The notes under the pieces: model-generated
The model's database searches: none
The model's input: the letters and a program-made list of their open reading frames with translations, nothing else
Told to the model about the DNA's origin: nothing
Origin: Pythium myriotylum
Lineage: Eukaryota > Oomycota > Peronosporomycetes > Pythiales > Pythiaceae
Assembly (NCBI GenBank): GCA_023091665.1
Contig: JALJCQ010000019.1
Coordinates: forward strand, 124,001 to 188,000
Direction: 5' to 3'
Length of the DNA: 64,000 bases
Part shown: positions 4,917 to 35,610 of the stretch, piece after piece
Numbering within the stretch: the first letter of the stretch is position 1
How the letters are laid out: each line of letters begins with the position of its first letter
Position numbers and translations under genes: made by a program

Positions 4917-4920
4917 AACC
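4909..4920 (-). other. Primer-binding site of truncated copia element
   Basis: On the minus strand, GGTTATGAGCCC follows the LTR end directly. It is complementary to the anticodon stem-loop of initiator tRNA-Met, as at 6,447. Confidence 0.7.
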
Positions 4921-13712: not shown

Positions 13713-13716
13713 AACC

Positions 13717-15242: not shown

Positions 15243-15397
15243 CTGGCTAGCTCCGACCCGCCCGTGACGCGAATGGGCAGAGAGCACACCGTGCCACGCG
15301 TAGTTGTCGACGAAGATCTGGAGCCGACGTACTTGGGTTGCATTCGGCCACGTATGCCGCGCTACGAATAGGATCCTGGGGATCATCACAGCCTGGC
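15243..15397 (-). pseudogene. LINE reverse transcriptase fragment (C-terminal side)
   Basis: The minus strand encodes PRILFVARHTWPNATQ and LQIFVDNYAWHG, the pattern that follows the RT palm in LINE-type non-LTR retrotransposons. The fragment is cut on one side by the copia LTR and on the other by the family A LTR. The preceding part of the same frame (RYLGGQI and RLHLASIKSTDILQRVHI) lies at 28,170-28,340. The two join in frame across the duplicated AGAT. Confidence 0.65.
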
Positions 15398-16384: not shown

Positions 16385-16519
16385 TTGGCGCTGATTCCAA
16401 CGCCATTCGACAAGAAATCTGATTGGCTAAATCCCGCAAGTCGTGGGTCGGTGAAATTCGATGTGGTTGCTCCGTTTTCGGAAACAATGTGAATTTTCGG
16501 AAACCAGTGGCGCGGACTG
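16385..16519 (-). repeat. Tc1 right terminal inverted repeat
   Basis: It is the inverted partner of 15,409-15,543 and is followed by TA at 16,520. Confidence 0.88.
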
Positions 16520-16602
16520 TATAGCGCCCCGATTCCATGAACATGAGCTCTGCGAGCATGAGGCGACCAGTCAAGTGAAGGTGTACGTGACCAAGTCCCA
16601 AG

Positions 16603-17012
16603 GAAGTGATCAGTCTGGCGTACCTTAGCACCCAAGTCAAGACGAAGTGAACAGTCTGGCGCCCAGGTCAAGATTCCGTATTCCAGATTCGGCGGTACAA
16701 GTTATCGTGTTTCTCTTTATTCAGAAGCCTCACACAAAAACAGTAGGAGTAGGAACCTTATATTTGACAGATTTCAGTAGGTAGGAATGGGTGCTTGCCA
16801 CCCAATAACCCACGGAAGGGAGGCGATTCTCCGCCGCTAATTCCGTGGGAGTCAGTCCAGAATTTTTCCTCCTTCTCGCAGAAGCCCCCTGATTCCCCCT
16901 CAACAGTAGCCCGTCAGTATCTCGAGGAAGTTACTAAGAGTTTCGAAGTGATCAGTCTGGTCGATCGGCTGCCTATTTTGGGTACTGTCGCGATCCGAAG
17001 TGATCAGTCTGG
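16603..17012 (+). repeat. Motif cluster in 5' LTR (4 copies of the 16-mer)
   Basis: GAAGTGATCAGTCTGG lies at 16,603, 16,945 and 16,997; the GAAGTGAACAGTCTGG variant lies at 16,644. Confidence 0.95.
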
Positions 17013-17309
17013 CCGAGGGCCTGGTGGTTTTGCCTGCGCTTCCTGCCAATTTCCCCGTAGGAGTTCTCCAGGAGCTCCATCGTCTCCAAGCCGTTCTTTC
17101 TCGCTGCCTCTAGACTTGTGAGGGTCTAGTTGTAGTGTCGTGTCAGAGTTCCGGGCCTCCGCTTCAAAGAAGTTGTGATATCCGGGTCTGAAGCGAGTGT
17201 TCGAAGCACGCAAGATCCACCCCTTTCCTGAGAATATTGTTGCCGTCGGTGACTCAAGAGCGAGCCTACGTACTCCAGGTGCCCGTTTTTGATTCTGCCA
17301 CACGACAAC

Positions 17310-17327
17310 TGGTGCGTATGCCAGGAG
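17310..17327 (+). other. Family A primer-binding site
   Basis: TGGTGCGTATGCCAGGAG lies 2 nt after the LTR end and is complementary to a tRNA 3' end including CCA. I cannot name the tRNA. Family B has the identical 18 nt at 27,280, although the two LTRs differ. Confidence 0.75.
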
Positions 17328-17361
17328 CGGAGCCGTTAGCTGTTACATACACGGTGAGAAG

Positions 17362-17883
17362 ATGGAAGAGAAGGCAGAGGTGCGGCAAGGTCAAGTCACA
17401 GACCCGAAGAATGTTTCGATCCGCCTCGTTGTTCAGAGCGCGATCCATGACACAACTCGGGTGTACCGACTGTCAGAAGCGAACGAAATCGGTCTTCGGT
17501 ATCAACGACAGGTGTTGAAGATGCCGTCCGACTCAGAATGCTGGTTTTCCCTGTATGAAATTACGAAAGTAGGGCCCACGACATTCTTTGCCGGTTCGCG
17601 ACTGAGGGCGTCCACCTACGACTTCGCGACGATTGACGAAGCGATTGATTTTGTGGAGAAGATGTTGACGTTGTGTGGTTACAATTTGTACCGAAGAAGC
17701 AATTACCAAGATGCAGTCTACCTGAATCCAGAACGGATGGCGCAGGACATGGGCTACATGATGTCAGTTCTGCTTGCCGAGTATGAGTGGGAGACTAGCG
17801 TTATCCAATACCGGGAGGAGGACACAACGTTTGATCCGAAGTACATGGCCATTGCTGACGTAGCCCACACTCCGCAGACCTAG
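17362..17883 (+). CDS. Family A ORF of unknown function (173 aa)
   Basis: An intact ATG-initiated frame lies between the primer site and gag and ends 18 bp before the gag start. It is mixed in charge, has no signal peptide, membrane segment or cysteine motif, and I recognise no domain. Its position at the 5' end suggests a small accessory protein or a Gag N-terminal piece translated before Gag. An out-of-frame ATG inside the primer site (17,318) precedes it. Confidence is for a real reading frame, not for any function. Confidence 0.6.
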   Translation: MEEKAEVRQGQVTDPKNVSIRLVVQSAIHDTTRVYRLSEANEIGLRYQRQVLKMPSDSECWFSLYEITKVGPTTFFAGSRLRASTYDFATIDEAIDFVEKMLTLCGYNLYRRSNYQDAVYLNPERMAQDMGYMMSVLLAEYEWETSVIQYREEDTTFDPKYMAIADVAHTPQT

Positions 17884-17901
17884 CCAGCGAAGCCGCGCTC
17901 G

Positions 17902-19286
17902 ATGAAACGCTTTGATGAAGAATCCAGCTCAGATGAAGAATTTCAACTCGAGAGCCCAATTAGGAAGAAGCTGGAGTTTGCCAGTGACGAAGGATCTCTC
18001 TCCTCCCCCATGGACAAGATGAAGCGAAAGAACAACCCGCTGGCGACGAAGCTGATGGCCCTGACGGCTGGCGGGATGTTGTCGATGGATGAGTTATCAG
18101 AAGTGATACAAGCGCTGAGCCCAGATACCGCGAAGCGAGTTGCGGCCACGCGAGCGCCGGTGAAACAGAATCGAGGCACTAAGAAAGGATTCGCGCGTCT
18201 AGAAGATTCCGAGTCTGACGACGATGAACTGGGGGAATCATCCGACGAAGAAGCAATCAAGCGCGCCAACAAACCAGTCAAGAAGTCGAAGAAGCCAGTC
18301 AAACACAGTGCTCGCCATTCAGATATGGAAGATGAGCTCGGTCTCTCAATGTATGAAGATTCTGACTCGGATGTATCCGGACCTCGACGACGTGATCGAC
18401 ACGTGACAACGGTCATCCAGAATGTCAATGTGAAGTCATTCAGTGGTGCCAAGGTTTTCCCGGAAGAAGCCAAGGCGTGGCTCTCGAAGTTTCTTCACAT
18501 CGCTGATCTGTCCAACTGGTCCAATCGTCAACGTCTCGGTTCGTTCGTAGACGCTCTCACGGGTCCGGCGAGGTATTGGCAGAAGCAGCTCCCTTCGTCA
18601 ACGAGGAAGAAATGGAAGCTTACGATGAAGGCCTTCTATCGAAAGTATTGCACCGAGAGCACGCCATCCACGCTCACGTACTACCGGCTAACCCAGAAGC
18701 CTGACGAGTCAGCGTTGGATTACTTCTATCGCTTTAATGCAGCAGGCCTTCGCGCTCGCATTGATTTCCGTGTAGACGATGACGATGACGAAGATCGTAT
18801 CCCGGCCGATTTGAAGGATCACATTCAGCAGTTCTTCGATACGCTACATGACAAAGCTGTTCAGTCTCAATTCCGTTACAGCAAGTACAAGTCGATTGAC
18901 AAGCTCGAGGAGAAGCTCGAGATGTACGAGAACTCTCAAGCGAAGCCAACGCCTAAGAAGCAGGCCAAGAAGCAACCGGAGGAGAGCAATGACCCACCTC
19001 CTGCAGTCAATAAGGTCAATGCAGGTCAGAGGCAGCAAGGCTCTAATGGTGGAGGTCAAGCTCATCAGACTAGTGGGAACGGCAAGAAGTCCGCTGTGAA
19101 CACTGTGGCAAGTCCGGACATACTAAGGAAAGTTGCTTTCAACTCCATGAGTATGAGTTTTGTGGGGTGACTGGTCACACGATACAAGTCTGCCGTGCTT
19201 TCACCGAGAAGATGAAGACGCTCAGTCCAAAGCTCAAGACCGGCGAGATTACTGTGGATGATCTCGTTCGGCAGTTAAACCGCTAG
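17902..19286 (+). pseudogene. Family A Gag (Ty3/gypsy) with frameshift at the zinc knuckle
   Basis: The ATG frame gives 422 residues. A Ser/Asp/Glu-rich N-terminal region comes first, then a gypsy Gag core (EEAKAWLSKFLHIADL, ALTGPARYWQKQL, YYRLTQKPDESALDYFYRF) and a Lys/Pro-rich tail. The nucleocapsid knuckle CEHCGKSGHTKESC and a second CGVTGHTIQVC are encoded in the -1 frame from 19,095 to the stop at 19,284. The main frame runs past them to a stop at 19,170. Either one base was lost or gained, or a -1 shift joins Gag to its knuckles. Confidence 0.8.
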
Positions 19287-19809
19287 CCCCGCAACAACCC
19301 GCCAGTGTTGTACGTGACGGGGATGTCGCGGGGACTTTGCATGTGGAGAAGATCCGGCGCAGATCGAAGAAATACCAGAAACAAAAGGCGCCTTACGTTG
19401 ATGAAGAAAGTGTTCACGTGGAAAATGGAGCGAAGAAACATGAAGAAACAAATTATGGTGACTCTGTGCATGAAGGATTGAACGTATATGAAGATACAGT
19501 TAAGGATGTCGCGCTACCTGCGGTGTTTGAATCGGTAGTGTTGACTGTGGATGAGAAACAAGAAGAAACAAGTGACGAAAATTGTGTATGTATATGAGAG
19601 AAGCAGTTGGTGATGAAGATGAAGAGCTGCATGTGCTATGGTGCCCAATTGAGCCAATTGAAGAAGGTGATGAGGGCGCTTGCGACGAAGATGCTGATGA
19701 AGAAGATATGAAGATGCCAAATGGTGCTCGAGATATATCTCTGCAAAGAAAGGTAACTCACATTCGTCTCGTTGGTGATGAACGACGAGGGTAGTGGAAG
19801 AACCACGAA
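19287..19809 (+). other. Acidic spacer between Gag and protease
   Basis: Two short frames (19,337-19,597 and 19,582-19,794) encode Glu/Asp/Val-rich sequence without a recognisable domain. This is probably the decayed linker of the polyprotein between Gag and protease. Confidence 0.45.
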
Positions 19810-20349
19810 TTGTCAACGAACGAAAAGATACCAGCCTTCGTGCATGGTGCTGTTGAAGGACTCGAGATTCCGTTGATGCTGGATTCGGGAGCGAACATCA
19901 GTCTGTTACACACCAACTTGGCACGTAAGTTGGGGTTGAGAGTGCGGGCGTTCGAGGACTCGAGTGAATTCTTCGGCGTGAGTGAGGAACCGATGCAAGC
20001 ACGCGGAAAGGTCATGGTGAAGATCCGACTGGGAGAGTTCGTGGTGTACGAAGTCGAGATGTGGGTGGCTGAGTTTGAAGCTCACTCGTTGATTATTCTC
20101 GGCACCGACTTCATGATGTGCGCCGGGCTGAAGATCGACTTGGGCAAGAAGCGGTGTGAAGTGCCTGACGAAGATGCGTTGCCGCTGCTGAGTTATGATG
20201 ATCTGCGCTGTGAGGCGTATGCGGCTTCGTATGATGCGGTGCGCTTGGCTGTGAGGACGCCACTCCTGCGTAGCAGCGACATTGCTGTGCTGGTTGCTGG
20301 GGAGACCCGCCTCGAAATGTCTGGAGTTGAGCAAGAGAGAGGCCACTAA
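19810..20349 (+). pseudogene. Family A aspartic protease region
   Basis: This frame encodes a retropepsin-like fold: the catalytic loop LMLDSGANISLLH, a flap-like region around KVMVKIRLGEFVVYE, and the second strand signature LIILGTDFMMCAGLKI. Retroviral-type proteases act as dimers and cut Gag-Pol. The frame ends at 20,349 while the RT frame opens at about 20,282 in another phase, so one shift separates protease and RT here. The three-motif cluster 20,387-20,483 follows immediately. Confidence 0.75.
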
Positions 20350-21813
20350 AGAGGCGAGTACGGAGCCGAATAGAGGCGCGGTCACCGAAGCGATCAGTCT
20401 GGCGGAATGTCTCAATCATGAAGAGGCCGAAGTGATCAGTCTGGTCCAGGGCAGAGCGGGAGCAACTGAAGTGAACAGTCTGGCGGATGAGCGAGCGTTT
20501 TCACAGGTTTGCATGCTGGACGGACCTCTCCCTGAAGATCTGGATCAGTCGAAGTTTGCAAGAGAAGTCTACGTCCATGAAGGGGTAGAGATGTCAGTTG
20601 AGAGCATGAGAGAGCAGATTGCGTTGCTACCTGAGTTTGACGAGGCCCCACTGGGGGAAGTCGACATGGGTGAAGCTGACATCGGCGACGAGGAGACGAC
20701 GGCCGAGGAGATTGAAATGATCAGAGAAACGTTGGAAGCAAGGTCCGCTAGCTTTATTAGCTCCGGGAACGCTCTACCGCCGACAGCGAAAGGAGTCGTG
20801 TGTGACGTGGACGTCGGGGACGCGAAGCCGATCGCTCAAGCCGCGAGACGAGTGCCGCCGCACCTGCGGGGAAGATTGTATGAGTTACTGCGTGGCCTTC
20901 TCCGACAAGGTTTGATAAGATATTCGAACTCACCGTGGGCATCACCGATCGTCATTGTGCTGAAGAAGAACGGGAAAGACATCCGCCTTTGCATCGACTA
21001 TCGCCTGGTGAATGGACTAACGAAGCTGATGGTGTACGCGATGCCACTGATAGACGACTTGCTCGACAATTTTGAAGGAATCATGTGGTTTTGCTCCTTG
21101 GATAATGCGAGTGGATTCTGGGCTGTACCTCTAACGGTCCGCGCGCGACTTGTGACTGCTTTTATCTGCCCGCTCGGACACTTCGAATGGACGAGGATGC
21201 CTCAAGGGTTGAAGAATGCTCCACAGATCTACCAGCGCATGATTGATAACGCGCTGTGGAGCATGGTGAGGCGACTCAGCAACCGTGATGTGAGATTCAA
21301 GGCTGTCGGGTGGACGGAGGAGTTAGATGACATGGAGGCCCAGCGAGAGAAAGAGCGCATCGACATTGACGTACCGCTGAAGCGAGATGTATTTCATCGA
21401 GGTGAACCACAAGAGTCGGATGTGTTGCCGGTGATCAAGCGTCGATCATACATCGACGATATCACCTTTGGGGCGACGACGTGGTCGGAGATGAACGTGA
21501 TGCTACAGTGTCTGCTCGACGCATTTCAATACTGGGGAGTGACGTGAGCTTGCGGAAGAGTTCGTTTGGGAAGAAGTCAGTTGAGTTCCTCAGTCACGTG
21601 GTCTCGCGAGAAGGGTTGATGAGCGCCCCAAGAAACCTCGAGTCGATCAAGCAGATGCCGTTTCCGTCGACGCAGAAAGGGTTGCAGCGATTCATCGACA
21701 GCCTGATTTATTACCACAAGTTTATCAGCAACTTCGCGACTTATGCGGCAATCCTGTATGAGGTCACTGACCTGAGACTGAGAGGTGGGAGCCAACTTGA
21801 TCATGCAAAGTGA
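20282..21813 (+). pseudogene. Family A reverse transcriptase
   Basis: The RT domain starts near VPPHLRGRLYELL and has SPWASPIVIVLKKNG, RLCIDYRLVNG, the first catalytic Asp in WFCSLDNASGFW, RMPQGLKNAPQIYQ and the palm YIDD at 21,449-21,460. A charged insertion of about 60 residues lies between NALWSMVRRL and SYIDD, a layout typical of oomycete gypsy elements as I know them. The frame stops at 21,547; the thumb and connection (FLSHVVSREGLMSAPRNL) continue in another frame to about 21,813, so at least one frameshift and one stop inactivate it. Confidence 0.85.
20387..20483 (+). repeat. Motif cluster at the protease-RT boundary (3 copies)
   Basis: Copies start at 20,387 (one C for T change), 20,429 and 20,468 (AAC variant). 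All three are in the RT frame and encode EAISL, EVISL and EVNSL. Confidence 0.93.
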
Positions 21814-22843
21814 GCCTTCGAAGAACTGAAGATGAAGCTATGCGACGCGCCTCTTCTGCGCCATGTTGAGCGCGGACGAGAGCTTGTTGTAGTGCACGAA
21901 CAAGTGGGCTTTCAGAGCATCAGTTTGCCAAGAGCACAACAGGATTCTACATCCAGTTCGATTTGTGAGTAAAGTCTTCAAGGATGCAGAGACTCGATAT
22001 ACGCCTGCAGAACACGAAGTGTTAGCTCTGCTAAAGACGCTCCACGTCGCGAGTCACTACTCGCTCGGCCAACCGATTGTAATGTACGCGAGATACTCTA
22101 CCATGAAGTGGGTCTTCACGTCGAAGAGTTTGATCGGTCGTACCATTCAGTGGGCCGCCATGTTGTCGCCATGGAACTTGACAATTATACGAAGCGATGA
22201 AACTCCCGCTGGCTTGATGGCAGTGTTGGCAGCATCAATAACCCCTGCAGAACAGATGGATGCAATACTCGAAGAAATCGCGCCGATGAAGGCAATTAAA
22301 GATATACCAGTCATTCGACCCTTCCCTGATCTTCGAAGAAATACAGACGGATACGTGCTCACGTTCGATGGGGCAGTCAAGTTGAAGGATACCCGGTCTG
22401 GCACGTTTGGTATGATCCTATGGAAACTGCCTGAGTGGAAGGTGGTTGCCGCGGAATATGATGTGAAGGAAGGGATTGCCGTGAACGACAGTGAATATCA
22501 CGGCCTGCTCGGCGCACTGGAACTGGCAACGACGCGGGGTATCAAGGAGGTGCTCGTGTGTGGCGACTCCCGCCTGGTGATCGGGCAGATAAACGGTGAC
22601 CTTCGGTGCAATCAAGCGTCGCTACAAGTCTGGTTGAATCGGGCGAAAGAGCTGCTCACCTTGTTCGACAGCGTGAGTTTCATTCACATCGCGCGTAAGT
22701 ACAACCAGGCGGCAGACTTCCTCACCAGAGAGGCCATGCGATCCCAGTCGAGGGGCGCAGTCACTGATGATGCGCTATGCGCGCTTGCACGACTTGGAGC
22801 TTTTGAATACTCTCCCGGAGCTGTTGTACCGTGTGGACCATGA
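21814..22843 (+). pseudogene. Family A tandem RNase H domains (gypsy RNH plus second RNH)
   Basis: After the thumb comes a degraded first RNase H. Its recognisable part is RYTPAEHEVLALLKTLHV and IVMYARYSTMKWV, with the usual Asp of the latter motif not seen. From about 22,345 a second, complete RNase H-like domain follows. Its candidate catalytic acids are in TFDGAVK, NDSEYHGLLGA, VCGDSRLV and NQAADFLTREA. A dual RNase H layout of this kind is known from plant Tat/Ogre and some oomycete gypsy elements. The frame is broken at 21,811 by a stop. Confidence 0.75.
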
Positions 22844-24149
22844 ACACGTGTGCGAAGGAAAGCCGGAGGCGGAACCGGGGGCCACTATAATGGTAAGGCG
22901 AGTTGATCAGTCTGGCCACAAGGTCGAGCCAAATTCAGCGCAACTGATCAGTCTGGAGTCGACTACCACCCGCGCAGAGCCAAGTGAACAGTCTGGTGAA
23001 GAATCGCAGTCAGTGTTGGACGAGATGAATGGACTCGCGCCAGTCAGAGTGGTGAGCGGGAGCCATATGGCGGGATTGCATGACGGTCCGAGCTGCGAAG
23101 TGTTTGTTGTCGACACGAGAAAGCGGACGAGGTCGAAGAAGGAGAGCCACTCGAAGAGGCAAAAAGAAGGGTCGAACGCAGCTGACATTGGGACATTCGA
23201 GGATGATGGATCGAAGCCGGCCAAAGAATGGACACCATTGCATGTGAGTGGGGAGATGCTAAGTCAAGCCCAGGTGGAGAGGTTCCGACGCGTGGCGACA
23301 GCGCAACGCCGAGATGAATGGTGCAAGCAGGTAATCGCGTATCTCGAGGGCAATGAGGATGAGTTCTCTTCGTCGACTGCGCTCAAGCGCGTAGCGCGGA
23401 TCGCTGTCCTATATGTGCTCGACTCAGATGGGGTGTTGTACTACTCCCCTCAAGGAGAGAAATCGGAGGCTTTGAAGATGCGACTGGTAGTGTCGGACAT
23501 TCTACAGAAAGATTTATTATGCGCCTATCATGAAGAACTCGGGGCCGGTGCACACCAAGGTGTGGGGCGTGTGTTCGAGCGAATGCGCCGTCTATACTAT
23601 TGGAGAGGCATGTATGCAGATGTAGAATGGTACGTTGCCTCGTGGGAAGACTGCGCCACTGCGAAGGGCAAGCCCCGATACAAAGGTCGGTCCAGTGGCA
23701 ATATTGACGCGACCAGACCATTTCAGGTGCTCGCTATGGATTTCGAGATCCCTCTCCCCAAGACGTACAACGGAAATGAAGCCATGCTCTGTTGCATTTG
23801 CCTCTTCTCAGGTTTTGTGATTCTTATTCCGATGGCCGACACGACAGCGCAATCCGTTGCAGAGGCGTATTTGAGTGGGGTGTTCAAGCGATTTGGGGCC
23901 CAGGAAATGATTCGACACGACCGCGACCCGCGCTTCATGAGTTCTGTGTTCAAGCGATTCAACCGCATGATGAATCAGAAGCAGCCCCCGACACTAGCTT
24001 ATCGACCGCAAGCGAATGGAAAACAGAAACGTTCTGTGCAGACTGTGGTGAGGGCGATCAAGTGCTATATTGCTGGTGCGGAGCAGAAGGACTGGGATGA
24101 ATATGTTCAGCAGCTTGAGTTGGCCCTCAACACGTCAGTGGGTCTATAG
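22767..24149 (+). pseudogene. Family A integrase, catalytically damaged
   Basis: The N-terminal zinc-binding region keeps its two His (YHEELGAGAHQG) but only one of the two Cys (SWEDCATAKG). The core shows Asp in LAMDFEIPL and Asp in RHDRDPRFMS. At the expected Glu position the sequence is PQANGKQKRS with Lys, so the DDE triad is broken. Before the integrase proper lies a charged linker with the motif cluster. A stop at 24,147 ends the frame; the sequence resembles integrase connection beyond it. The product would not integrate DNA. Confidence 0.8.
22900..22996 (+). repeat. Motif cluster at the RNase H-integrase boundary (3 copies)
   Basis: Copies start at 22,900, 22,941 and 22,981. The middle one is read as QLISLE; the outer two fall in another phase (VDQSG and SEQSG). 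Confidence 0.92.
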
Positions 24150-24912
24150 CACAAGCAGACTAGTTTTTACCTGGTGCATGGCTGGGATGCACGAACGCAA
24201 CTAGAAGCAGCGATTCCCCCCAAGGATGGCACACTCAAGGAACGAAATGCACTTGAATGGCGGCAAAAAATTGCAAAGCAGCATGAACAAGCTCAAGCGC
24301 ACGCCGAATTTATTCAGCAGAAATTAATGGAAGAACGTGCGAGGTAGAACAACGTGCAGGCCGACGAGAATCTGCAGTCGATAGTGAGAACAGAGTATCA
24401 GCCAGGTGAGCTTGTGTGGCTGTATCACGTTTTGGTCAAGGAAGGGCTCGTAAGGAAGCTATCGCACCTGTGGCATGGTCCATTTCAGATAGAAGAGCGT
24501 GTCAGTGAGTCGGTGTACAAGCTAAAGTTCGATCGGAGCGAGAGTCAAGTCATGCCGATGATCCATATCTCCCGGCTCAAGCCATTCGTTTCAAGGATGC
24601 GGAGGCCACGTGAAAAGGTTGAGAGCATTCAGGACCTCGAGTTGGACGAAGCTCTATTACCTGAGGATTCGTGGTACGAAGAAGGTGGTCGACTGCCGAT
24701 ATAAGGAGCGGACGAGGAACAGTAGACGAATGCGCGAGTACTTGATCAAATGGGTCGGTCACGAGGAGGCTACATGGGAGCCGGAAGAGAATCTACACTG
24801 CGACGCTCTGCTGTACGAGTTCGACGCAAGACGGGCATGGGAGAACCGCAAGGACGCCGCTCAAACTACTCATGAGGAAGAGGTCGATGAGAGTGATTCG
24901 AGTGACGAGTAG
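24150..24912 (+). pseudogene. Integrase C-terminus: GPY/F module and chromodomain
   Basis: The frame 24,354-24,704 carries HLWHGPFQIEERVSESVYKL, the GPY/F module of Ty3/gypsy integrases. A second frame from about 24,710 carries MREYLIKWVGHEEATWEPEENL, a chromodomain core with the conserved WVG and TWEP. This marks a chromovirus-type element, whose chromodomain can direct integration to modified chromatin. One frameshift separates the modules. The frame ends with an acidic tail at 24,912. Confidence 0.82.
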
Positions 24913-26247
24913 AGAGTGACCTGGCGAAGTGATCAGTCTGGTGTGAGAAGGTGCTCGGCGAAGGGACCAAGTGAACAGTCTGGTCGGAGCGAGGTCACAA
25001 GAGTGAGGGGACGAGACTGAAGGTGCGCGGCGAGGTGATGCGGAGCGCCGCGATTGAAGGAGAGACGTTGAGGAAGAAAAGACGGTGAGGAGAAGGAGAA
25101 GAAGAAAGAGCTGAATGAAGTACAGCTCTATAGCGACCTGACCCGGATCGAATACGTGGTAAGGTCAAGTTCTGGGGTTGAAAGGTGAATCGAACCCACT
25201 GTACAGCCCTGCGATGGAATCCGGCGCCGGGGGCCCAAGTTGGCTGCGGAATGCTGAGGTGCGGACCCGAGTTGGTTGCACAAGAAATCGCGAAGTTGAC
25301 ATGTGATGAACAAGTTTCAAGGAGCTACGTTTTGTGGTGATTGCATTCTGCCATGGGTATGCGGCGGATGCACCAAGATTTGATATTGTATTGTTGACAT
25401 GGAAGCTACAAGCCTTAGGCGGTGCCAGTGCACTGGGTTGACCGAAAAAGGCTACGTCTTGACACGGAGACTGTCCGGCGAGACGACAATTGAGGTGATG
25501 TGGCGGGCGAGGTGGCGAGTGAAGCGCATGTTCGGAATCTGGCTGTCTGATCAACTACCGGGTGAAGAACAGAAGCGAGCGCACGCACGTGTCAGCGAAA
25601 GTGGTGATCTGCTGTTGAGCCTGATCAGCGAAACAGTATACGAAGCGCGGACGTTGACCACCCCTGTCGTGGAAGCCTTAGAAAGAAATGAGAGAGTTAG
25701 GCGGACTCGGAGCGGATCGAACCCGCCGACAGAAACGAGCGAGTTGAGATGGCTTGACGCGGAATGAACCCACTAAGAAGCCGCGGCGTTGTCGAACTGA
25801 AGGGCTCCTTCGAGTGGATCATCTTGATGCGCCGGTTGAGAAGGATGATGTGACGCAGCTGAGAGAAGAGAGAGGAAGCGTGTGTGTATGTGCGAAGAAA
25901 ATGATGAAAATGAGGTGACTGATGACAAGCGAGATGTGATAGACGAGGAGGCCCGTGCGCCAGAGAGAAACGAAGCGGTATGGATGCCAGAGAGGAAGAG
26001 CGCACCTTTGTAGTGTGGCGCGGCCTGCGTTGATGACGTGAAGATGACTGGGGACGACTCAAACTCGTAGGGCGAAGCGCGGTGACGAATGGCGCCGGAG
26101 GCAAGAGACCTGTTTGGTTGATGAGTGGTACGACTTGGCTTTAAATACTGGCCCCAAGGAAAGCGAAGTGATCAGTCTGGCCAGGTTTGTTAGGGATCGG
26201 TCTGGTCGGTTTTGGTGAAGTGATCAGTCTGGTCACCGTGAGGGGAA
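24913..26247 (+). other. Family A region after the chromodomain, no recognised gene
   Basis: This 1.3-kb stretch contains four motif copies (24,926, 24,968, 26,165, 26,217) and a degenerate one near 26,195. An open frame of 122 residues (25,399-25,767) has no recognisable domain. The last bases, GAGGGGAA, look like a polypurine tract, but GGAA is explained better as the target duplication of the family B LTR. Confidence 0.6.
26244..26247 (+). other. GGAA target-site duplication (left)
   Basis: Its partner is TTCC at 34,582-34,585, beside the inverted family B LTR. Confidence 0.7.
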
Positions 26248-27277
26248 TGTGGTGAAGTGCCTCCGGTTTCGGGCAGCCCACCGTCACCAAGGCACTGCGA
26301 GGTATTGTGACGAAGCGACCCGGCGCTGTGGGCGACAGGGAGCATGCGAGGCGCCGCCGAGCGACTTAGACAGTTTCAGGTAGTCGATTGAAGAGATTAG
26401 TCTCGGCCTGGATTGATATGCCGGACCGGTCCGGTTCACTTGAACCGGTCCGGATTCTTGGCACCAGGTCCGGCTTTCCGACTTAGTGACGTGTCATAGT
26501 GACCCAGACGTTGTGACATTATCCATGTCACTATCGCGGGTCATTCGCAAGGTAGTCAGTCTAGCCAGTCTAGGACCCGGCTAAGTACGAGGGGCGACTT
26601 GCCTCACGTCCTACAATAATAGACTTTGAATTCTGCGGTCAAGTGCTCAAGTCGCTCGCCCTCCAAGACAAGAAACCGGACCCTCTTCGGGATCCCAGAC
26701 CCAGCAAGGTACGCTTGCTCGTGTTAGGCCTGCGCGTAGTGGATTTGGCTCTGGCTCGGGTGTGCATTGGTGTGTTGAGTGCTTGATTGTGTGAGTCTGG
26801 AGCAAAACTCCCGAGACTTTGTCTAAAGGGACTTGGTCAACTCCAAGGCCCCAAAGACACTCCATATTAGCGTGTGTAGTAGTTGCTCTGGCGGGAAGCC
26901 GGAGCATTTCATATTAAGGAAGGAGAGTGTGTGAGAGAAGTTGCGAGTATATTGATAGTTGGTTGAGCGAGGCTCTCTAACTCATATAATATATTCACCC
27001 CCCCCCCCCCCCCCCCCCCCCCCCCCGATTTTCCTGTGCTTGTTGGTCTTCTTGTGATCGCTTCTGGACCGATCGAAGTGGCTCTTATTCACTGGCTTCC
27101 AAAGAGCTGCGAAAGGGTACACAACGTGAGGGCGGAAAGCTAGCGAAAGCTTGAAGCCGATTTATTACTGTCTGAGTGCTAAACCCGACGCTACCCCTTC
27201 GTCGGAGTTTAGTGGGAGTGGAATAGAAAGGTCGCTAGCTTGCTACATACGCGGGCTTTTGAACCCACTTCATCACA
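26248..27277 (+). repeat. Family B LTR (1,030 bp, plus orientation)
   Basis: It starts TGTGGTGAAGTGCC and ends CTTCATCACA. It is followed by the same primer site as family A. It holds a C-run at 26,998-27,026 and a hairpin with CCGGTTCA/TGAACCGG arms near 26,431-26,448. Its inverted partner is 34,586-35,610, which differs mainly in homopolymer length. Confidence 0.9.
26998..27026 (+). repeat. Poly(C) run, 29 bp
   Basis: The inverted LTR copy has 24 G at 34,837-34,860. This length difference explains the 1,030 versus 1,025 bp LTR sizes. Confidence 0.95.
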
Positions 27278-27279
27278 AC

Positions 27280-27297
27280 TGGTGCGTATGCCAGGAG
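27280..27297 (+). other. Family B primer-binding site
   Basis: TGGTGCGTATGCCAGGAG, 2 nt after the LTR, is identical to the family A site. The ATG within it opens the following frame. Confidence 0.75.
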
Positions 27298-27746
27298 CCA
27301 GAATATCTACTTCCACATCGAGCGGTTCTGATATGATGCAGGCAGAAGCCCCCAGGGATGTTGACAAGCAACAGGAACCCGACTCCGGGTCGAAAACCGG
27401 AGTCATGGCCCACCAGCGCCAAGAAGCTGGCATGCGGCGCCAATCTGTGGTTGGCGCCAGCCGTCTGGGTCTCCCAGACGACTTTGAAGATGAAGTGAAG
27501 ACCGAAGATGGCGAAGAATATTTCAGCGGTCCCAAAACCAGCTCTTCAACCGATAATGTCACGGCGGTGCCCGTTACCAGTCAACCGGACACAGAGACTA
27601 CGTCGAAGAAGTCCCGGAGGTGCGGAAAGAGGGGTGTTCGCAAGAAGCATAGCACGCTAAAGAAGTCGGTCGATCCAGATTCGGTGAAAATGATCGAGTT
27701 CGTGTTATTCCCTATAAAAAAATATGGAATTACCAAAAACTGCTAA
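27288..27746 (+). pseudogene. Family B 5' ORF, truncated (152 aa)
   Basis: The ATG is inside the primer site. The product is hydrophilic, rich in Ser, Asp and Lys, with a basic stretch KKSRRCGKRGVRKK near the end, which would suit nucleic-acid binding. I recognise no domain. It is probably the N-terminal part of a Gag-like protein cut off by rearrangement, because no related sequence follows. Confidence 0.45.
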
Positions 27747-28169
27747 TAGCTTGCTACGACAACTCTTTATCCCTACAAATCTGGCACGATGGCGGACTTC
27801 GTCGCCCACATATACCAAGAGTTTCATGTCTTCATTTGATGCATAATTGTTCATTGTTTTCGTTCACAAGATGTACAATTTGGGCTCCGCTTGGAATTTG
27901 TGATGAGGCTCGCATCCACGATCGTATTTCGTTCGGCGCAGTTATCTCGTTGTGTGTAGTATTTTAGCTCAATGGGTGCTTTGTGTTACTGTGTGTGACG
28001 CGGGACTTTTGGTTAGTGTGATTTGCATTTGCGTGCGTGTAATGTGTAATGGGCCCACAGCCCATTACAAGAGAGTAGGTTCTATAAGAGAGAGTTGTCC
28101 CTCCCGTGTCTCTGATTGGTCAGAGACCAGTCTGTCTCGATAAGCATCAAGTCGACCGTGCGCAAAGAC
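27747..28169. other. Unassigned stretch with a GGGC hairpin
   Basis: No gene is seen. A perfect inverted repeat TGTAATGGGC...GCCCATTACA at 28,045-28,069 is followed by TATAAGAGAG. This may be the start of an LTR of another family, but no end was found. Confidence 0.35.
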
Positions 28170-28340
28170 TCTCTACGTTCCCAGTCGCGCCCGCAGATCG
28201 GCTTGTGCGATATCTTGGTGGGCAAATCTCTACCATCCTCCGATCCGACGCGATTTGGGACCTTACTATCCAGCAAATACAAGCGAGACTGCATCTCGCG
28301 TCGATCAAGTCAACCGATATCCTGCAGAGGGTCCACATCT
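28170..28340 (+). pseudogene. LINE reverse transcriptase fragment (N-terminal side)
   Basis: The plus strand encodes RLVRYLGGQISTIL and QARLHLASIKSTDILQRVHI, matching the YLG region and following helix of LINE RTs. It ends at ATCT (28,337-28,340), the complement of the AGAT at 15,398. Joining it to 15,243-15,397 gives a continuous LINE frame. The two halves are now 13 kb apart and in opposite orientation. Confidence 0.6.
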
Positions 28341-29081
28341 TGTCGTGTGGCAGAATCAAAAACGGGCACCTGGAGTACGTAGGCTCGCTCTTGAGTCACC
28401 GACGGCAACAATATTCTCAGGAAAGGGGTGGATCTTGCGTGCTTCGAACACTCGCTTCAGACCCGGATATCACAACTTCTTTGAAGCGGAGGCCCGGAAC
28501 TCTGACACGACACTACAACTAGACCCTCACAAGTCTAGAGGCAGCGAGAAAGAACGGCTTGGAGACGATGGAGCTCCTGGAGAACTCCTACGGGAAAATT
28601 GGCAGGAAGCGCAGGCAAAACCACCAGGCCCTCGGCCAGACTGATCACTTCGAAACTCTTAGTAACTTCCTCGAGATACTGACGGGCTACTGTTGAGGGG
28701 GAATCAGGGGGCTTCTGCGAGAAGGAGGAAAAATTTTGGACTGACTCCCACGGAATTAGCGGCGGAGAATCGCCTCGCTTCCGTGGGTTATTGGATGGCA
28801 AGCACCCATTCCTACCTACTGAAATCTGTCAAATATAAGGTTCCTACTCCTACTGTTTTTGTGTGAGGCTTCTGAATAAAGAGAAACACGATAACTTGTA
28901 CCGCCGAATCTGGAATACGGAATCTTGACCTGGACGCCAGACTGTTCACTTCGTCTTGACTTGGGTGCTAAGGTACGCCAGACTGATCACTTCCTTGGGA
29001 CTTGGTCACGTACACCTTCACTTGACTGGTCGCCTCATGCTCGCAGAGCTCATGTTCATGGAATCGGGGCGCTATACCACA
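28341..29081 (-). repeat. Family A 3' LTR (741 bp, minus orientation)
   Basis: It is the inverted partner of 15,402-17,307. It starts (minus strand) TGTGGTATAGCG after a polypurine-like GCAGGGGACGG and ends CACACGACA next to AGAT. It lacks the Tc1 and one 52-bp motif unit. Motif copies lie at 28,636, 28,937 and 28,978. Confidence 0.9.
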
Positions 29082-29142
29082 GCCGTCCCCTGCGAAGCTC
29101 CAGCACCGCGGAGGAGAGCGAGCACACCTGGGTCACCCTTCT

Positions 29143-31515
29143 TTACAGCAGCACTGCGTCTTGGGCGTCGCCAATGACTCTCGAGTCGTTAGCGCTGGCC
29201 AGCTTCCTCATGTGGTCCTTGTCTTTCAGCACAGCGCCAGCTTCCTCTGGTGTCCATCTTGATCTCCCGTACGTGATCCTCATGTCGATCGCTTGTTGGC
29301 GGAATTTCGCCCACGTGCTATCTTGAGCGAGAGTCTGGTCATCCGCGAGAACGAACATGTATTCCTTGGCACGACTCAGGGACACCAGCAATCGCGAGGG
29401 ATTATTCTTCAAGAATCCCATTTTCACATGGCGCACCATCGAGGTGATCGTGATGTCAGCTTCACACCCTTGGCTCGAGTCCACAGTCTTTACTTCCACG
29501 TCTAGAAAATTCTCGTAGAGATTTTTCCACTGCAGAGCGTCTTCCTTTAGTCTCTTGACTTGCTCCGCGTAGGGGGAGATAACTAGGATACTCTTGCGCC
29601 ACACCCTATGCGTCATCTTGGATTGCAGTTTGAGTTGCGCCTTGATCCGCAAGATCAGTTCCATCACCAGCGCTTGTTCGATCACATTCACGAACTTCTC
29701 CTCACTCGCAGATTTCCGTCGGCCGTCGGGGTGAAAACCTTCGTTGCCTGAGTCGAGCCATATTGCGGACGGTCCTCGAGGCAGGGGCGGTCCGTTCTCG
29801 ACTCCATCCCTAGACCAACTTGCGTCATCCTGCAGAGGCGGTAGCAGCATCCCAACCAGATATCCTGCAGTGTTGCTGATAGCGGAGCGCAGCGGGTAGT
29901 CGTAAAAGGGTTGCAATAGTGTCACTAAATCTGGTCCACACCGAAAAATGTCCTCCGTCGTTAGCCCCGGGAACTTCATGCCGTAAGATGCGTAGCAATG
30001 TTCGAACGTGTGGAACACACACCAATTGAGCTTGTGCCGTCTCTCATCGCCGGGGAACCTCTCAGCGAAGTTTGTCGGTAGCGAGCTGTGCCCCCGCAGC
30101 TGGTTGGGGTCCCCTGCTAGTAACAGCGTGTGCGTACCTTCGCGAAGAGCTTGGATCACCGCGGCTCCCGCAACCTGTGCGCCTTCGTCGATGATCACCA
30201 CGTGATTCGCTGGATACCGATATTTCGCACTTCCCATCGTCGCTAATGTGGCGACAAGAACCTTCGCTCGAGCTAGCAAATGGTCTTCGTACTTCTTCAT
30301 TTCGGGTGCCACCATGTCGGGCCGGTCAGGGTATATCCGTTCTATTAACACCCGTCTTTTCTTCATGAGTTCGTCGAGGTAGATCCCTGCAAACTCCTGC
30401 ATGTGAGCATCACACTTCCCAAGCCTCAATATTTCGTCTTCGGGCACTAGGTTCTTCTGCCGGAGTCGTCGGAGGTCCTCATCAATCGCGGCGTTCGTTT
30501 CTGACACGACTGCAATCACTCCTTGGAGCACGCCTCACGGTGGACGGATATCACGCGTGTCAATGTCGTCGTCTTGCCGCAGCCAAACGGGCCTCGTACT
30601 AACATGATGCCAGTCTTCGTAACGAACTCCTCGACCACTCCCATTTGGCTTGGTCTCAAGAATAGCGACTTCGTCCACATCCTCACTTTCTTCGCTCGGG
30701 TCTGTTGGGGTCGCGGACGTTCCTTCTGATGCATGTCCCGCATGGCAAGCGCTGTGACGAGCGGCGCAGGTCGCGGTGCCGCTTGGTCTATCGCCAGGAA
30801 ACGTCGCACGTAGTTCAATAAACTTGTCATCGGGACCCACATTAAATCGAGTCTGCTTGGTTGGGCTGACGTGATACTCGCGTTCGTGACTATAAACCAC
30901 CGGGATCCAGATCTCATCAACACCCCGCGGCCCAATACTTGACGCTCATGTAAATATCTCTCGCCTGCCACCACCGCACCGTAATCCCATGGCGAGAGCT
31001 GCGCTTCGCAGACTTGCTGATCCGTAGTCATGTCCAGAGAGAGGTATAATGTGGTCATCGAGCACAATAACGGGTGAAGATGGATCACCGATCTTGCTCC
31101 ATCGCTCCCTTGTTCGTCACCTTCGCTTCCACCGCCAGGCCACTCTTCTGACATCTGATTAGTCATCGATCCCCCTGAGAGCCTCAGCCGGACACACTTC
31201 CCATCTCGCTTGATGGGTGGCAAGTCGGGGCCTTCAGTGGCGTAGAGCATCTCGAGATGCGCCGCAAGCGCGCCCGCCAGCAGATAGTCTCCCACGCTCG
31301 TGAAGTAGTCGAAGTTGACCCGTCGCATCTTGAAATATCGCCTGTCTACACTCGCCTTCATACTGGAAATGCGGGCGGTTCACATCGTACGCTAAGCAGC
31401 AGTCTTTGTTCCGGCACTCTCCGTATTTGTCTGTCCACATCTCCCTCAAGAATATTGTGTGCGATTCTTCGCCGCGCGAGAGGATTGTTCCGGCCAGCAT
31501 CAATTCCCTCGACAA
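29143..31515 (-). pseudogene. SF1 (Upf1-like) helicase carried by family A
   Basis: Superfamily 1 helicase motifs occur in order over three overlapping frames. These are Walker A RGPFGCGKTTTLTR (about 30,560-30,600), VIAVVSETNAAIDEDL (motif Ia-like), Walker B VVIIDEGAQVAG (about 30,170-30,205), LLLAGDPNQLRG (motif III), DSSQGCEADITITSMVR (motif V region) and LLVSLSRAKEYMFVLAD (motif VI). The order and the QG.EAD and SRA signatures fit Upf1/SMG2-type ATP-dependent RNA/DNA helicases. A Cys-rich stretch (ECRNKDCC) lies N-terminal to it. A frameshift near 30,520 separates motif I from Ia, and another at the poly(G) run, so this copy is broken. I infer a role in element RNA or cDNA handling. Confidence 0.78.
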
Positions 31516-31527
31516 ACACTTGTCGAT

Positions 31528-31552
31528 GGGGGGGGGGGGGGGGGGGGGGGGG
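31528..31552 (+). repeat. Poly(G) run, 25 bp, in the helicase N-terminal region
   Basis: On the coding (minus) strand it is poly(C), reading as poly-Pro in one frame. The helicase frame changes across it. Confidence 0.95.
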
Positions 31553-31788
31553 TGCCGGACCGTCGGGAAGGCGCATCTTGTCTAGGCCGCCTTCAATCAT
31601 ATCTTCTACGCGCTGCTCACTATCTTTGTAAAACGTCCTCAACTTGGAGTCTGGTGCGAGGTCACTTGCTTTCAAACGATCGCATGTGTCGGCTGAGAGA
31701 ACTTTCCTTGATTGGTCTGGAGCAATTCGGACGGTGATGTATTGTGGTGCACCATCATGTGCATTTCGCCACACCACTTCGTCCTCCT

Positions 31789-33894
31789 CTACCATCGGCG
31801 TAGCGCGTGGTGGGTCTTGAGGCTTTTGAATCTCGTGGGATCCGCCTTCGCTGCTCTCTGCGGCATGGTCTCCCAAACTGGAGGGAGCGCCCCCCCGGAA
31901 GAGGCCAGACTGTTCACTACGCTTCGACTGGCGACTGGTTCCTTGACCAGACTGATCACTTCAGATGGAGGGTCCACTGAAAGGTCGACCAAGTTAGTTG
32001 CCTTTGCTACCTCCGCCAGACTGTTCACTCCAGCTTGCCTGGCCTCTGGCAAACCTTCCAGACTGTTCACTTCGTCTCCACCGTCCACTAATGGGGTAGC
32101 CAGACTGATCACTTCGGGTGCGTGGTCTGAAACTTCGTCAGTCTTGGACGAAGCTTGAGCAATCGGAGCATCGGCTCCTGTCTCCGCTGGTCCGCCTTCA
32201 TGCACTAGAGTTGAAGGTGTTCCGTCCGTAGCGCCTTCGCGCACACCTTCCCCGTGGGCCTGCAGTCTGCGGGTCTCCGTCTCTCTGGGCGCTGGCATTT
32301 CTCCGGTAGTTCCTCCGATCACACTGGCGCTGTCCCCAAAATTCTCGCCCGCCGTCTGTCGCTCTGACACCGTCTTCTTGCTCCAAGTCCGTCGACAGAT
32401 TCTCGGCTTGGCCGCTCATCCCTTGGTCCGTGTCTTGTTTCGACCCTTCACTTGCTTGCTGGCTGCAATATTCTACGATGGCCGTCGCCTCACCAAGAGC
32501 TTGTGCCACGGCAAGGTCGACGTCTTCTTCATCAGGTCTGGCTGGGTCATTCGTTGGTGCGTCATCATCTGACTCTTCATTCACGCCCTCGAACGAGATC
32601 TCGTCTCCACTCTCGACGACGCTCTCGACATCCGCACTGCCAGATCGCAGGGCTAGTAGCGTCTCAGCCAATACGGCGCTTGGCATCGTGTATTCCGAGT
32701 GGGCGACGGTCTTCCCTAGCTGAGTGGCACCATCTTGGTTGGACTCGCACACAAACGGCTCGATGAGGATTCCTTGGCCTGGACTGGCTTCCTTCTCTTC
32801 CGTCAAACCGCCGACTTCCCCATCGATGGCGTGCAGCTCTTTCCAACGACGACGCACAGCAATCTCGGAGACTTCCAACGCTGCCGAGAGTTCTTTCATC
32901 GCTTGTCCGCGCTTCCGCTTCTTTTGCTTCATAGCCTGACGAATCTGTTGATCGTCCTTGTCCGTCCACCGCCTGGGCAGCTTTGTCGTCTCGGGTCTCC
33001 CATCACGTAAGGTGTTCAGTCGTTTATTGATGGCCACAATGGTGCGGTCACCAATGGGCACTCCGTCTCGTTCTCCGAGGGCAAGGAGCTCGCTCTGTAT
33101 CGCTTCGTGACATATAACTGCGCCCTCGTCCTTATGCGCGTGTAGAGCCTTCATCAATACGGCGTCTTCGTCGGGATGCCATACTCGGCGCACCATTGTC
33201 AGCGTTTGTCGGTCAGTGGCCGTCCCCTGGTCGCTTGAACGGTTGCTGTTGCGACTCGAATCTTGCTCTGAGATGCTGGAGAGCTTGGTCACCACTGCCT
33301 TGTATTCTCGAGATGTCCACCCGTGAGCCTGAACCTTATCAAGATACTTCGCATATATGTCTCGGTTCGAGGTCTTCGCCTTCTTCTCCGCAGTCAGAAA
33401 CGCTTCCTGGTCCACTTGGCGAGCTTGGGTTCTGTACTCTTCCTCAACTCTGGATCTCGTTGGCAGCGAGCTCGGCAGGCATTAGCGTCACGCAATGGGT
33501 GTCCGGTGACTTCGTTGATCTTGTTGAACTCCTCAGCGAACCGGTCCCACGCCCACCTGTTACGGTCCTTCAGCTCGTACAGGACGCGTAACGTCTTGAG
33601 CTGCCCTTCCGGCCAGTGTGAGCCAGCACTCCTCTTTGGGGCTGGACGAGCAGGGGCTTCAGCTTGGCTTCCGGCACGAGCGAGCTTTCTTGGCGAGTTG
33701 ATAGAGGTATCTTCCTCATCTTGAGCCGTGTGTCGAGCGGAGGTCGAGGGCGGCGGCGCTTCTTGGTGCGCACCTTGTCGCGTGGCTTCTCCTTCAATTC
33801 CAGGCGGCGTCTCGATAGCGTCTTGCCGCCCTTCGTCTGCGCCCTCCACCTGGTCCTTGACAGTCCCACGCTTGCGCTTCATGCCAGCTGCCAT
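31789..33894 (-). pseudogene. Myb/SANT-like protein region carried by family A
   Basis: From the ATG at 33,894 the coding path crosses three overlapping frames, with shifts near 33,400 and 32,370. It contains three tryptophan-anchored helical modules: SHWPEGQLKTLRVLYEL to RDANACRARCQR; RRVWHPDEDAVLMKALHAH; and RRWTDKDDQQIRQAMKQ to VRRRWKELH. They resemble trihelix/SANT-Myb DNA-binding domains. An acidic region and the five-copy EV(I/N)SL repeat follow, leading into the helicase. It was probably one polyprotein, SANT modules then helicase. Function in DNA binding is inferred from fold resemblance only. Confidence 0.6.
31905..32115 (-). repeat. Motif cluster between SANT block and helicase (5 copies)
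   Basis: Copies lie at 31,905, 31,947, 32,016, 32,058 and 32,100. All five are in one reading frame and encode variants of EVISL, EVNSL, GVNSL and VVNSL. Confidence 0.93.
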
Positions 33895-33905
33895 TGTTCC
33901 GTTCG

Positions 33906-34129
33906 CCAGACCTGATCACTTCGCGCCGGCCTCGATAGGGTATCTCCGCCAGACTGTTCAACTCACTCGATTTCCTCGTTCGCAGTGGATGTTTCTTGAC
34001 ACTCCAATTGAGCTCTCCCCTTCTTACACGTTCTTATACGTTCTTAGACGTCGAGGCTGGGCCTTCACCAACCAGACTGTTCACTTCCGTTCTAGGAACC
34101 TCCACCTCGTCCGCCAGACTGATCACTTC
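33906..34129 (-). repeat. Motif cluster upstream of the SANT ORF (4 copies)
   Basis: Copies lie at 33,906 (one extra base), 33,949 (degenerate), 34,072 and 34,114. All lie upstream of the ATG at 33,894. The rest of 34,130-34,581 shows no convincing gene. Confidence 0.9.
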
Positions 34130-34585: not shown

Positions 34586-35610
34586 TGTGATGAAGTGGGT
34601 TCAAAAGCCCGCGTATGTAGCAAGCTAGCGACCTTTCTATTCCACTCCCACTAAACTCCGACGAAGGGGTAGCGTCGGGTTTAGCACTCAGACAGTAATA
34701 AATCGGCTTCAAGCTTTCGCTAGCTTTCCGCCCTCACGTTGTGTACCCTTTCGCAGCTCTTTGGAAGCCAGTGAATAAGAGCCACTTCGATCGGTCCAGA
34801 AGCGATCACAAGAAGACCAACAAGCACAGGAAAATCGGGGGGGGGGGGGGGGGGGGGGGGTGAATATATTATATGAGTTAGAGAGCCTCGCTCAACCAAC
34901 TATCAATATACTCGCAACTTCTCTCACACACTCTCCTTCCTTAATATGAAATGCTCCGGCTTCCCGCCAGAGCAACTACTACACACGCTAATATGGAGTG
35001 TCTTTGGGGCCTTGGAGTTGACCAAGTCCCTTTAGACAAAGTCTCGGGAGTTTTGCTCCAGACTCACACAATCAAGCACTCAACACACCAATGCACACCC
35101 GAGCCAGAGCCAAATCCACTACGCGCAGGCCTAACACGAGCAAGCGTACCTTGCTGGGTCTGGGATCCCGAAGAGGGTCCGGTTTCTTGTCTTGGAGGGC
35201 GAGCGACTTGAGCACTTGACCGCAGAATTCAAAGTCTATTATTGTAGGACGTGAGGCAAGTCGCCCCTCGTACTTAGCCGGGTCCTAGACTGGCTAGACT
35301 GACTACCTTGCGAATGACCCGCGATAGTGACATGGATAATGTCACAACGTCTGGGTCACTATGACACGTCACTAAGTCGGAAAGCCGGACCTGGTGCCAA
35401 GAATCCGGACCGGTTCAAGTGAACCGGACCGGTCCGGCATATCAATCCAGGCCGAGACTAATCTCTTCAATCGACTACCTGAAACTGTCTAAGTCGCTCG
35501 GCGGCGCCTCGCATGCTCCCTGTCGCCCACAGCGCCGGGTCACTTCGTCACAATACCTCGCACTGCCTTGGTGACGGTGGGCTGCCCGAAACCGGAGGCA
35601 CTTCACCACA
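34586..35610 (-). repeat. Family B LTR (1,025 bp, minus orientation)
   Basis: It is the inverted copy of 26,248-27,277. On its high-coordinate side, minus-strand sequence AAGGGGCGGT forms a plausible PPT, making it the 3' LTR of the element to its right. On its low side lies TTCC (GGAA) and the family A interior, not a primer site. Confidence 0.9.

What the first reader, a model, noticed from the sequence alone, without database searches (positions are those of the whole stretch)
16603..34129. 26 copies of a 16-nt motif, all inside one retrotransposon, clustered at gene boundaries
Seen: GAAGTGATCAGTCTGG or GAAGTGAACAGTCTGG at 16,603, 16,644, 16,945, 16,997, 20,387, 20,429, 20,468, 22,900, 22,941, 22,981, 24,926, 24,968, 26,165, 26,217 (plus) and 28,636, 28,937, 28,978, 31,905, 31,947, 32,016, 32,058, 32,100, 33,906, 33,949, 34,072, 34,114 (minus). 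All share one orientation after the inversion is undone. They occur in coding and non-coding parts and in the LTRs, but not in the Tc1, family B, copia or host genes. Conservation exceeds that of the surrounding decayed sequence. Candidate roles: binding-site arrays like the gypsy insulator, RNA packaging or translation signals, or selfish micro-repeats.
Basis: seen in the sequence. Interest (0 to 1): 0.92.

Follow-up and report, generated by a model that had tools for sequence, protein, structure and literature searches.

The report
Retrotransposon carrying its own DNA-binding-site arrays
A large mobile element in what looks like a water-mould genome carries about two dozen copies of a short DNA address tag along its length, and related elements carry their own altered tags at similar spacings, as if each family labels itself for a DNA-binding protein, possibly one it encodes.

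Summary
The motif is real: 25 of the 26 listed sites match within 2 mismatches (17 exact); the 26th has a one-base insertion. The genome holds 352 exact copies, 0 of the reversed control. The host is a ~16-kb Ty3/gypsy retrotransposon with two RNase H domains and a chromodomain (Chronos-like), plus an ORF joining four Myb-like repeats to an SF1 helicase. Motif cores vary less than their surroundings: 1.3% vs 4.5% internally, 0.9% vs 3.1% in LTRs. Neighbouring sites are mostly 39-43 or 51-52 bp apart across unrelated spacers. Sites inside one ORF are read in two frames, so peptide is not the constraint. Key new result: in the pieces examined, diverged relatives in the same genome lack this motif, but two types carry their own related motifs in pairs 42 or 51-52 bp apart, one in both orientations inside one element. 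Best reading: family-specific double-stranded-DNA binding sites that change in concert, probably read by the element's fast-diverging Myb-helicase protein. Binding and effect are inferred. Closest analogue: VANC/VANDAL anti-silencing in Arabidopsis.

The parts
16519..17308 (+). 5' LTR of the host element, beside a Tc1-like insertion
   Evidence: inverted 93% match to 28340-29077; matches LTRs of other genomic copies
16603..16659 (+). array A1 (LTR), sites 16603 and 16644, spacing 41 (42 in most copies)
16945..17012 (+). array A2 (LTR), sites 16945 and 16997, spacing 52 (38 of 39 LTRs counted)
17884..20349 (+). gag and aspartic protease region (open stretches 17884-19170 and 19795-20349)
   Evidence: ORFs; domains named on genomic copy L001 (Retrotrans_gag, Asp_protease_2)
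20387..20483 (+). array A3 between protease and RT, sites 20387, 20429, 20468; coding, EV(I/N)SL frame
20484..22843 (+). RT, RNase H and second RNase H region, broken in this copy; limits approximate
   Evidence: ORFs; RVT_1, RT_RNaseH, RVT_3 on L001
22900..22996 (+). array A4 between second RNase H and integrase, sites 22900, 22941, 22981 (spacings 41, 40); coding, in two reading frames
22997..24912 (+). integrase plus chromodomain region, broken in this copy; right end approximate
   Evidence: Integrase_H2C2, rve, Chromo on L001
24926..24983 (+). array A5, two sites 42 apart; in L001 it begins 14 nt after the pol stop codon
26165..26232 (+). array A6, two sites 52 apart, no long sense ORF; core invariant in 11 of 11 distinct copies aligned
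26248..27277 (+). 1-kb unrelated repeat, one end of the inversion
   Evidence: 99.3% inverted match to 34586-35610
34586..35610 (-). second copy of the 1-kb repeat, other end of the inversion
   Evidence: breakpoints
33906..34129 (-). array A7 upstream of the Myb-like ORF: 34114, 34072, 33949 and the one-base-insertion variant at 33906
32198..33915 (-). ORF3: four Myb/SANT-like repeats (broken in this copy; one open frame with ORF4 in several other copies)
31905..32115 (-). array A8 between the Myb-like repeats and the helicase: five sites, spacings 42, 42, 69, 42
   Evidence: 0 of 60 core bases differ from the C1 copy L006 at 18.7% background divergence
29143..31379 (-). ORF4: superfamily 1 helicase (AAA_11/AAA_12), in two frames in this copy
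   Evidence: ORFs; domains on L002
28340..29077 (-). 3' LTR with A1 copies (28978, 28937) and one A2-type site (28636)

Best explanation
The 16-mers are double-stranded-DNA binding sites of one sequence-specific protein. They are laid as small arrays (2-5 sites, mostly 42 or about 52 bp apart, i.e. four or five helical turns) along a 16-kb Chronos-like LTR retrotransposon, in both LTRs and in several coding linkers and non-coding stretches. Related families have their own version of the site, changed in concert across the arrays seen. The most likely reader is the element's own ORF3-ORF4 product, four tandem Myb/SANT-like repeats joined to an SF1 helicase: it is under purifying selection within the family but has diverged far more between families than pol. 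Most likely effect: the protein coats integrated DNA of its own family, cooperatively on one face of the helix, and keeps it transcribable (self-recognition with anti-silencing or auto-activation). Shown: motif, constraint, DNA level, regular spacing, concerted change in two sister types, ORF architecture.
For: 352 exact genomic copies vs 0 control. Core mismatch rate 1.27% (34/2667) vs 4.51% (1169/25939) in six internal arrays; 0.88% (24/2724) vs 3.12% (942/30167) in 43 distinct LTRs. In the most diverged pairs: A8 0/60 vs 83/445, A7 1/36 vs 88/440, A6 0/24 vs 38/280. Not peptide: within one 957-codon open frame of L001, A4 reads VDQSG, QLISL, SERSG, i.e. two frames; LTR copies are non-coding. 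Information lies at positions -1 to +17 (23 sites of one copy), and spacers are unrelated. Of 23 hand-tabulated neighbour spacings from three motif types, 14 are 39-43 and 5 are 51-52; the 19 short ones are more in phase at 10.5 bp than any of 20000 draws of uniform spacings, which ignores shared ancestry. Relatives: the C22/C3 type (pol 70-73%) has CAGTTAGCACTCTGA -42- GAGTTAACACTCTGG or close variants at A4, A8 and LTR; the C26 type (58%) has TRYGATCACTGTCA at 51/52, 91 genomic copies (controls 0 and 3), neighbour spacings 52 (15), 51 (12), 109 and 124, and five antisense sites inside the C26 element, four of them mirrored in the C30 copy. ORF3: four tri-helical units in the model; dN/dS 0.10-0.19 in the 15 of 21 pairs with dS above 0.09. 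A C3 relative keeps the four repeats at 24% identity although pol of that type is 70-73% identical.
Confidence: 0.55

Rival explanations
1. Same DNA-level arrays, but read by a host-encoded protein (insulator factor, activator or repressor), as Su(Hw) reads the gypsy insulator.
For: Array form resembles the gypsy insulator, 12 Su(Hw) sites in 340 bp (PMC2374998, passages). No direct link between ORF3 and the motif has been shown.
Against: Motif type differs between related families in one genome, which one fixed host protein would not favour. Sites are spread over the whole element rather than one cluster. The element carries its own multi-repeat DNA-binding candidate.
Confidence: 0.22
2. RNA-level signals (packaging, translation or processing) repeated along the genomic RNA.
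For: In the main-family copies scanned all sites are in the sense orientation; they occur in coding, non-coding and LTR parts alike.
Against: The C26-type sister motif lies in both orientations within one element, repeated in a second copy. Spacing keeps mostly to 42 and 51-52.
Confidence: 0.07
3. Peptide-level function: EV(I/N)SL as polyprotein protease cleavage sites at domain boundaries.
For: A3 and A8 copies read EVISL/EVNSL in frame at the PR-RT and Myb-helicase joints.
Against: LTR copies are non-coding. A4 copies sit in two frames of one ORF and encode VDQSG/SERSG as well as QLISL. The DNA is what is conserved, codon choice included (AGT is 22% of Ser and CTG 29% of Leu codons in this element).
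Confidence: 0.03
4. Selfish micro-repeat or relic of tandem duplication without function; the 42-bp spacing is inherited.
For: 42-bp spacing recurs in several arrays and in the C22 type; a T-type site often precedes an A-type site. Conservation in LTRs is not exceptional within the LTR.
Against: Spacers unrelated between sites; motif constrained against background over 43 LTRs and 10-15 copies of each internal array; concerted replacement in sister types.
Confidence: 0.1

Closest known systems
VANC/VANDAL sequence-specific anti-silencing (Arabidopsis DNA transposons; PMC5735166 passages, PMC10398659 abstract and outline)
   Same: Short motif in many copies inside the element; motif differs between related families; the element encodes a protein, shown there to bind it and to evolve with its targets.
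   Different: Here an LTR retrotransposon; reader candidate is Myb-like repeats plus SF1 helicase; sites also in coding linkers and LTRs; spacers unrelated rather than tandem repeats; mostly 42/52 bp spacing. Binding and anti-silencing not tested.
Gypsy insulator, Su(Hw) sites (PMC2374998 passages)
   Same: Array of short sites inside a Ty3/gypsy element.
   Different: One 340-bp cluster of 12 sites in the 5' UTR read by a host zinc-finger protein; here 8 arrays over 16 kb and several family-specific motifs; different motif.
Chronos LTR retrotransposons of oomycetes (PMC5348765 passages)
   Same: Ty3/gypsy with dual RNase H and integrase chromodomain.
   Different: The words helicase and Myb do not occur in that paper's main text; no motif arrays in the passages seen.
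SF1 helicases captured by retrotransposons, e.g. LINE-like TRAS of insects (PMC6338049 passages)
   Same: A superfamily 1 helicase carried as an accessory domain by a retroelement.
   Different: Virus-derived helicase in non-LTR elements of insects in the passages seen; no Myb repeats or motif arrays mentioned there.
Transposon accessory protein with a DNA-binding and a DNA methyltransferase domain (Sola1 in Ectocarpus; PMC12477816 passages)
   Same: Element-encoded DNA-binding plus effector domain proposed to act on the element's own DNA.
   Different: DNA transposon, methyltransferase effector, no motif arrays in the passages seen.

Membership tests
Chronos | Two RNase H domains in tandem | tested here: met
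   RT_RNaseH/RT_RNaseH_2 and RVT_3 in adjoining open frames of L001
Chronos | Chromodomain at the C-terminal end of pol after integrase | tested here: met
   PF00385 at 878-930 of the 957-aa frame
Chronos | RT in the Chronos clade | not testable with these tools
   no reference Chronos sequences held
Chronos | Oomycete host | tested here: inconclusive
   organism not named; a Crinkler-domain gene (E 5e-26) and the element type suggest it
VANC-like self-recognition system | Family-specific short motif in many copies inside the element | tested here: met
   main and C26 types; C22 type only in three pairs
VANC-like self-recognition system | Element-encoded protein binds the motif | not testable with these tools
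   ORF3 is a candidate only
VANC-like self-recognition system | Protein removes silent marks from its family | not testable with these tools
   no methylation or expression data
VANC-like self-recognition system | Homology to VANC proteins | not tested
   no VANC comparison made
Gypsy insulator | Sites match the Su(Hw) consensus (core TGCATA) | tested here: not met
   motif core TGAWCAGTCTGG vs (TC)(AG)(TC)TGCATA(CT)(TC)(TC) quoted in PMC2374998
Polyprotein cleavage site | Same peptide at every copy | tested here: not met
   two frames at A4, non-coding copies in LTR
RNA packaging signal | Sense orientation only | tested here: inconclusive
   main-family copies scanned are sense only; the C26-type sister motif has antisense copies

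The most novel reading that the evidence does not exclude
An LTR retrotransposon lineage that runs its own sequence-specific 'address system': it encodes a Myb-repeat/SF1-helicase protein and scatters family-specific, helically phased binding arrays through its LTRs, genes and gaps, so that each family marks and activates (or de-silences) only its own integrated copies. Protein and sites diverge together and split the lineage into non-cross-reacting families.
Probability: 0.35. Interest if true: 0.88.

Novelty: new variant of a known kind. Interest (0 to 1): 0.72.

Why it matters
If right, coevolving self-recognition between a transposon protein and its DNA sites, documented for plant DNA transposons, also arose in a retrotransposon in a distant lineage. 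It would give a sequence-only test bed for how DNA-binding specificity changes while about twenty sites in one element must change with it, and a possible reason why some giant retrotransposons carry a DNA-binding/helicase ORF. It also shows a DNA-level code kept inside coding linkers in more than one reading frame.

Tried and rejected
Peptide/protease-site idea: my first hypothesis, dropped because A4 copies lie in two frames and LTR copies are non-coding. An earlier count said three frames; two is correct (corrected).

RNA-signal idea: disfavoured after antisense copies appeared in the C26-type family.

Within-family spacing test: inconclusive. Four of 43 LTRs without four scorable sites were set aside. 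52 bp is kept in 38 of 39 against about 32 expected from the indel rate between arrays. For A1, 31 of 39 read 42 and five read 85, probably because the script picked a degenerate third LTR site; about 34 expected.

Spacing table: entered by hand, one value for each homologous interval (42 for A7 where L002 has 41; 42 in A8 where L002 has 32), without the A7 insertion variant, the C26-type 109 and 124, and distances between arrays.

Association of the C26-type motif with helicases: I used 24 of the 32 helicase rows under 80% identity and dropped the eight weakest.

Main motif elsewhere: viral contigs gave 18 stretches with one exact match each and no array, read as chance. ORF3 found no relative at E <= 0.001 among the 7997 scored candidates; the helicase found five distant ones among 7995.

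Literature: no paper linking helicase or Myb ORFs to Chronos-like elements was seen in the listings; that is a limit of those searches, no proof of absence. Retrotransposons with SF1 helicases are in print (PMC6338049 passages). on element-encoded binding proteins showed 10 of 107 papers, none fitting by title. PMC7082073 (passages) describes a copia element at oomycete centromeres; not this element.

Codon probability printed assumes ten AGT-CTG sites; in L001 one A3 site reads GGT CTG, so I use only the codon fractions.
Full report
OBSERVATION. The 26th position carries a one-base insertion. The assembly (58.7 Mb, 55 contigs) has 352 exact copies and none of the reversed control; only the first 100 places were listed. 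At least 40 stretches match the window's LTR (40 of 69 candidates were scored).

THE ELEMENT. The uninterrupted copy L001+L002 runs LTR, gag, protease, array A3, RT, RNase H, second RNase H, array A4, integrase with chromodomain, array A5, about 1.2 kb, A6, about 0.5 kb, A7, ORF3 (four Myb/SANT-like repeats), A8, ORF4 (SF1 helicase), LTR; each LTR holds A1 and A2. Other fetched copies show the same array pattern, some incomplete. No array lies between gag and protease. ORF3 and ORF4 form one open frame of 1586 codons, stop to stop, in several copies. The window copy is broken by a 1-kb repeat with a four-base overlap at the joint, and the second half is inverted between that repeat and another copy of it.

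CONSTRAINT. In 43 distinct LTR sequences (48 hits, identical ones counted once) motif columns differ from the majority at 0.88% against 3.12% elsewhere; the four motif windows rank 54, 137, 160 and 249 of 760, so other LTR parts are as conserved or more. In six internal arrays (10 to 15 distinct copies each) the 12-nt core differs at 1.27% against 4.51%. In the most diverged pairs the contrast is sharp for A5-A8: A8 0 of 60 against 83 of 445, A7 1 of 36 against 88 of 440, A6 0 of 24 against 38 of 280, A5 0 of 24 against 37 of 333. For A3 and A4 it is weak: 2 of 48 against 31 of 431, and 3 of 36 against 38 of 357. Copies are related by descent, so these are not independent counts.

DNA LEVEL. 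Copies sit in LTRs, in coding linkers and between genes. In A4 of L001, inside one open frame of 957 codons, the first and third copies are read in one frame (VDQSG, SERSG) and the middle one in another (QLISL). Flanks carry almost no information, and the 26-nt stretches after the sites are barely more alike than random element sequence (mean 7.0 against 6.65 identities). In a hand-made table of 23 neighbour spacings from three motif types, 14 are 39-43 bp and 5 are 51-52 bp; 69, 78, 80 and 123 are exceptions, and one copy also has 32. Two preferred distances about one helical turn apart suggest same-face binding, but shared ancestry of arrays could contribute.

CONCERTED DIVERGENCE. Searches with the helicase and pol proteins found relatives in the same genome at 70-75%, 58-59% and 37-46% pol identity. 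In 18 short pieces of these (L049-L066) the main 16-mer does not occur at two mismatches or fewer. The C22/C3 type (70-73%) instead has CAGTTAGCACTCTGA and GAGTTAACACTCTGG, or close variants, exactly 42 bp apart at A4 (two elements), A8 and LTR. The C26 type (58%) has TRYGATCACTGTCA 51 or 52 bp apart after pol and in the LTR. Misses: L049, L051, L054, L055 and L060-L066 held no site of either sister motif at the threshold used, and L057 no pair. Genome-wide the C26-type motif has 91 exact matches (controls 0 and 3). Its neighbour distances up to 130 are 52 (15), 51 (12), 109 and 124; 54 of 91 sites, in 7 of 22 clusters, lie within 10 kb of a diverged helicase match, which covers under 0.9% of the genome (24 of 32 helicase rows used). 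In the C26 element five sites are antisense, four of them mirrored in the C30 copy. The C22-type pattern was chosen after seeing the sites; its genome count is 17 against controls of 1 and 2.

MECHANISM. I favour family-specific self-recognition of integrated copies, with anti-silencing or auto-activation as the most likely result, by analogy with VANC proteins (PMC5735166, passages; PMC10398659, abstract and outline). A host reader is the strongest rival. Placement at gene boundaries may reflect only where such sites are tolerated.

RELATION TO KNOWN KINDS. SF1 helicases in retroelements are in print (PMC6338049, passages). I saw no report of such arrays together with a Myb-helicase ORF in an LTR retrotransposon in the listings.

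Noticed in passing
G000:C22:656000-812000 (L021-L036): Repeated arrangement of the element: LTR, about 15.3 kb, LTR, about 6.15 kb, with a ~21.4-kb period, in both directions along the block; possibly an amplified or centromere-like region.
   Followed up: partly
L033:1924-3753: The 6.15-kb unit between LTRs holds a Crinkler-domain gene (610 open codons, PF20147 E 5e-26) and a fragment of another gag; no motif outside the LTRs.
   Followed up: partly
window 1-15243: Nested and inverted copies of a Ty1/copia-like element sharing ~1.2-kb stretches at about 99% identity.
   Followed up: no
window 26998, 31528, 42866: Runs of 25-29 C or G.
   Followed up: no
window 53375-53702: Four copies of an 81-bp tandem repeat (92% alike) inside a long open frame.
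   Followed up: no
L006 vs L002, helicase region: Two copies of the family differ by dS 0.74 with dN 0.045, hinting at deep sublineages in one genome.
   Followed up: no
LTRs, e.g. L007:684, L014, L017: A degenerate third site (GTGATCAGTCAGG-like) 43 bp before A1 in some LTRs.
   Followed up: partly
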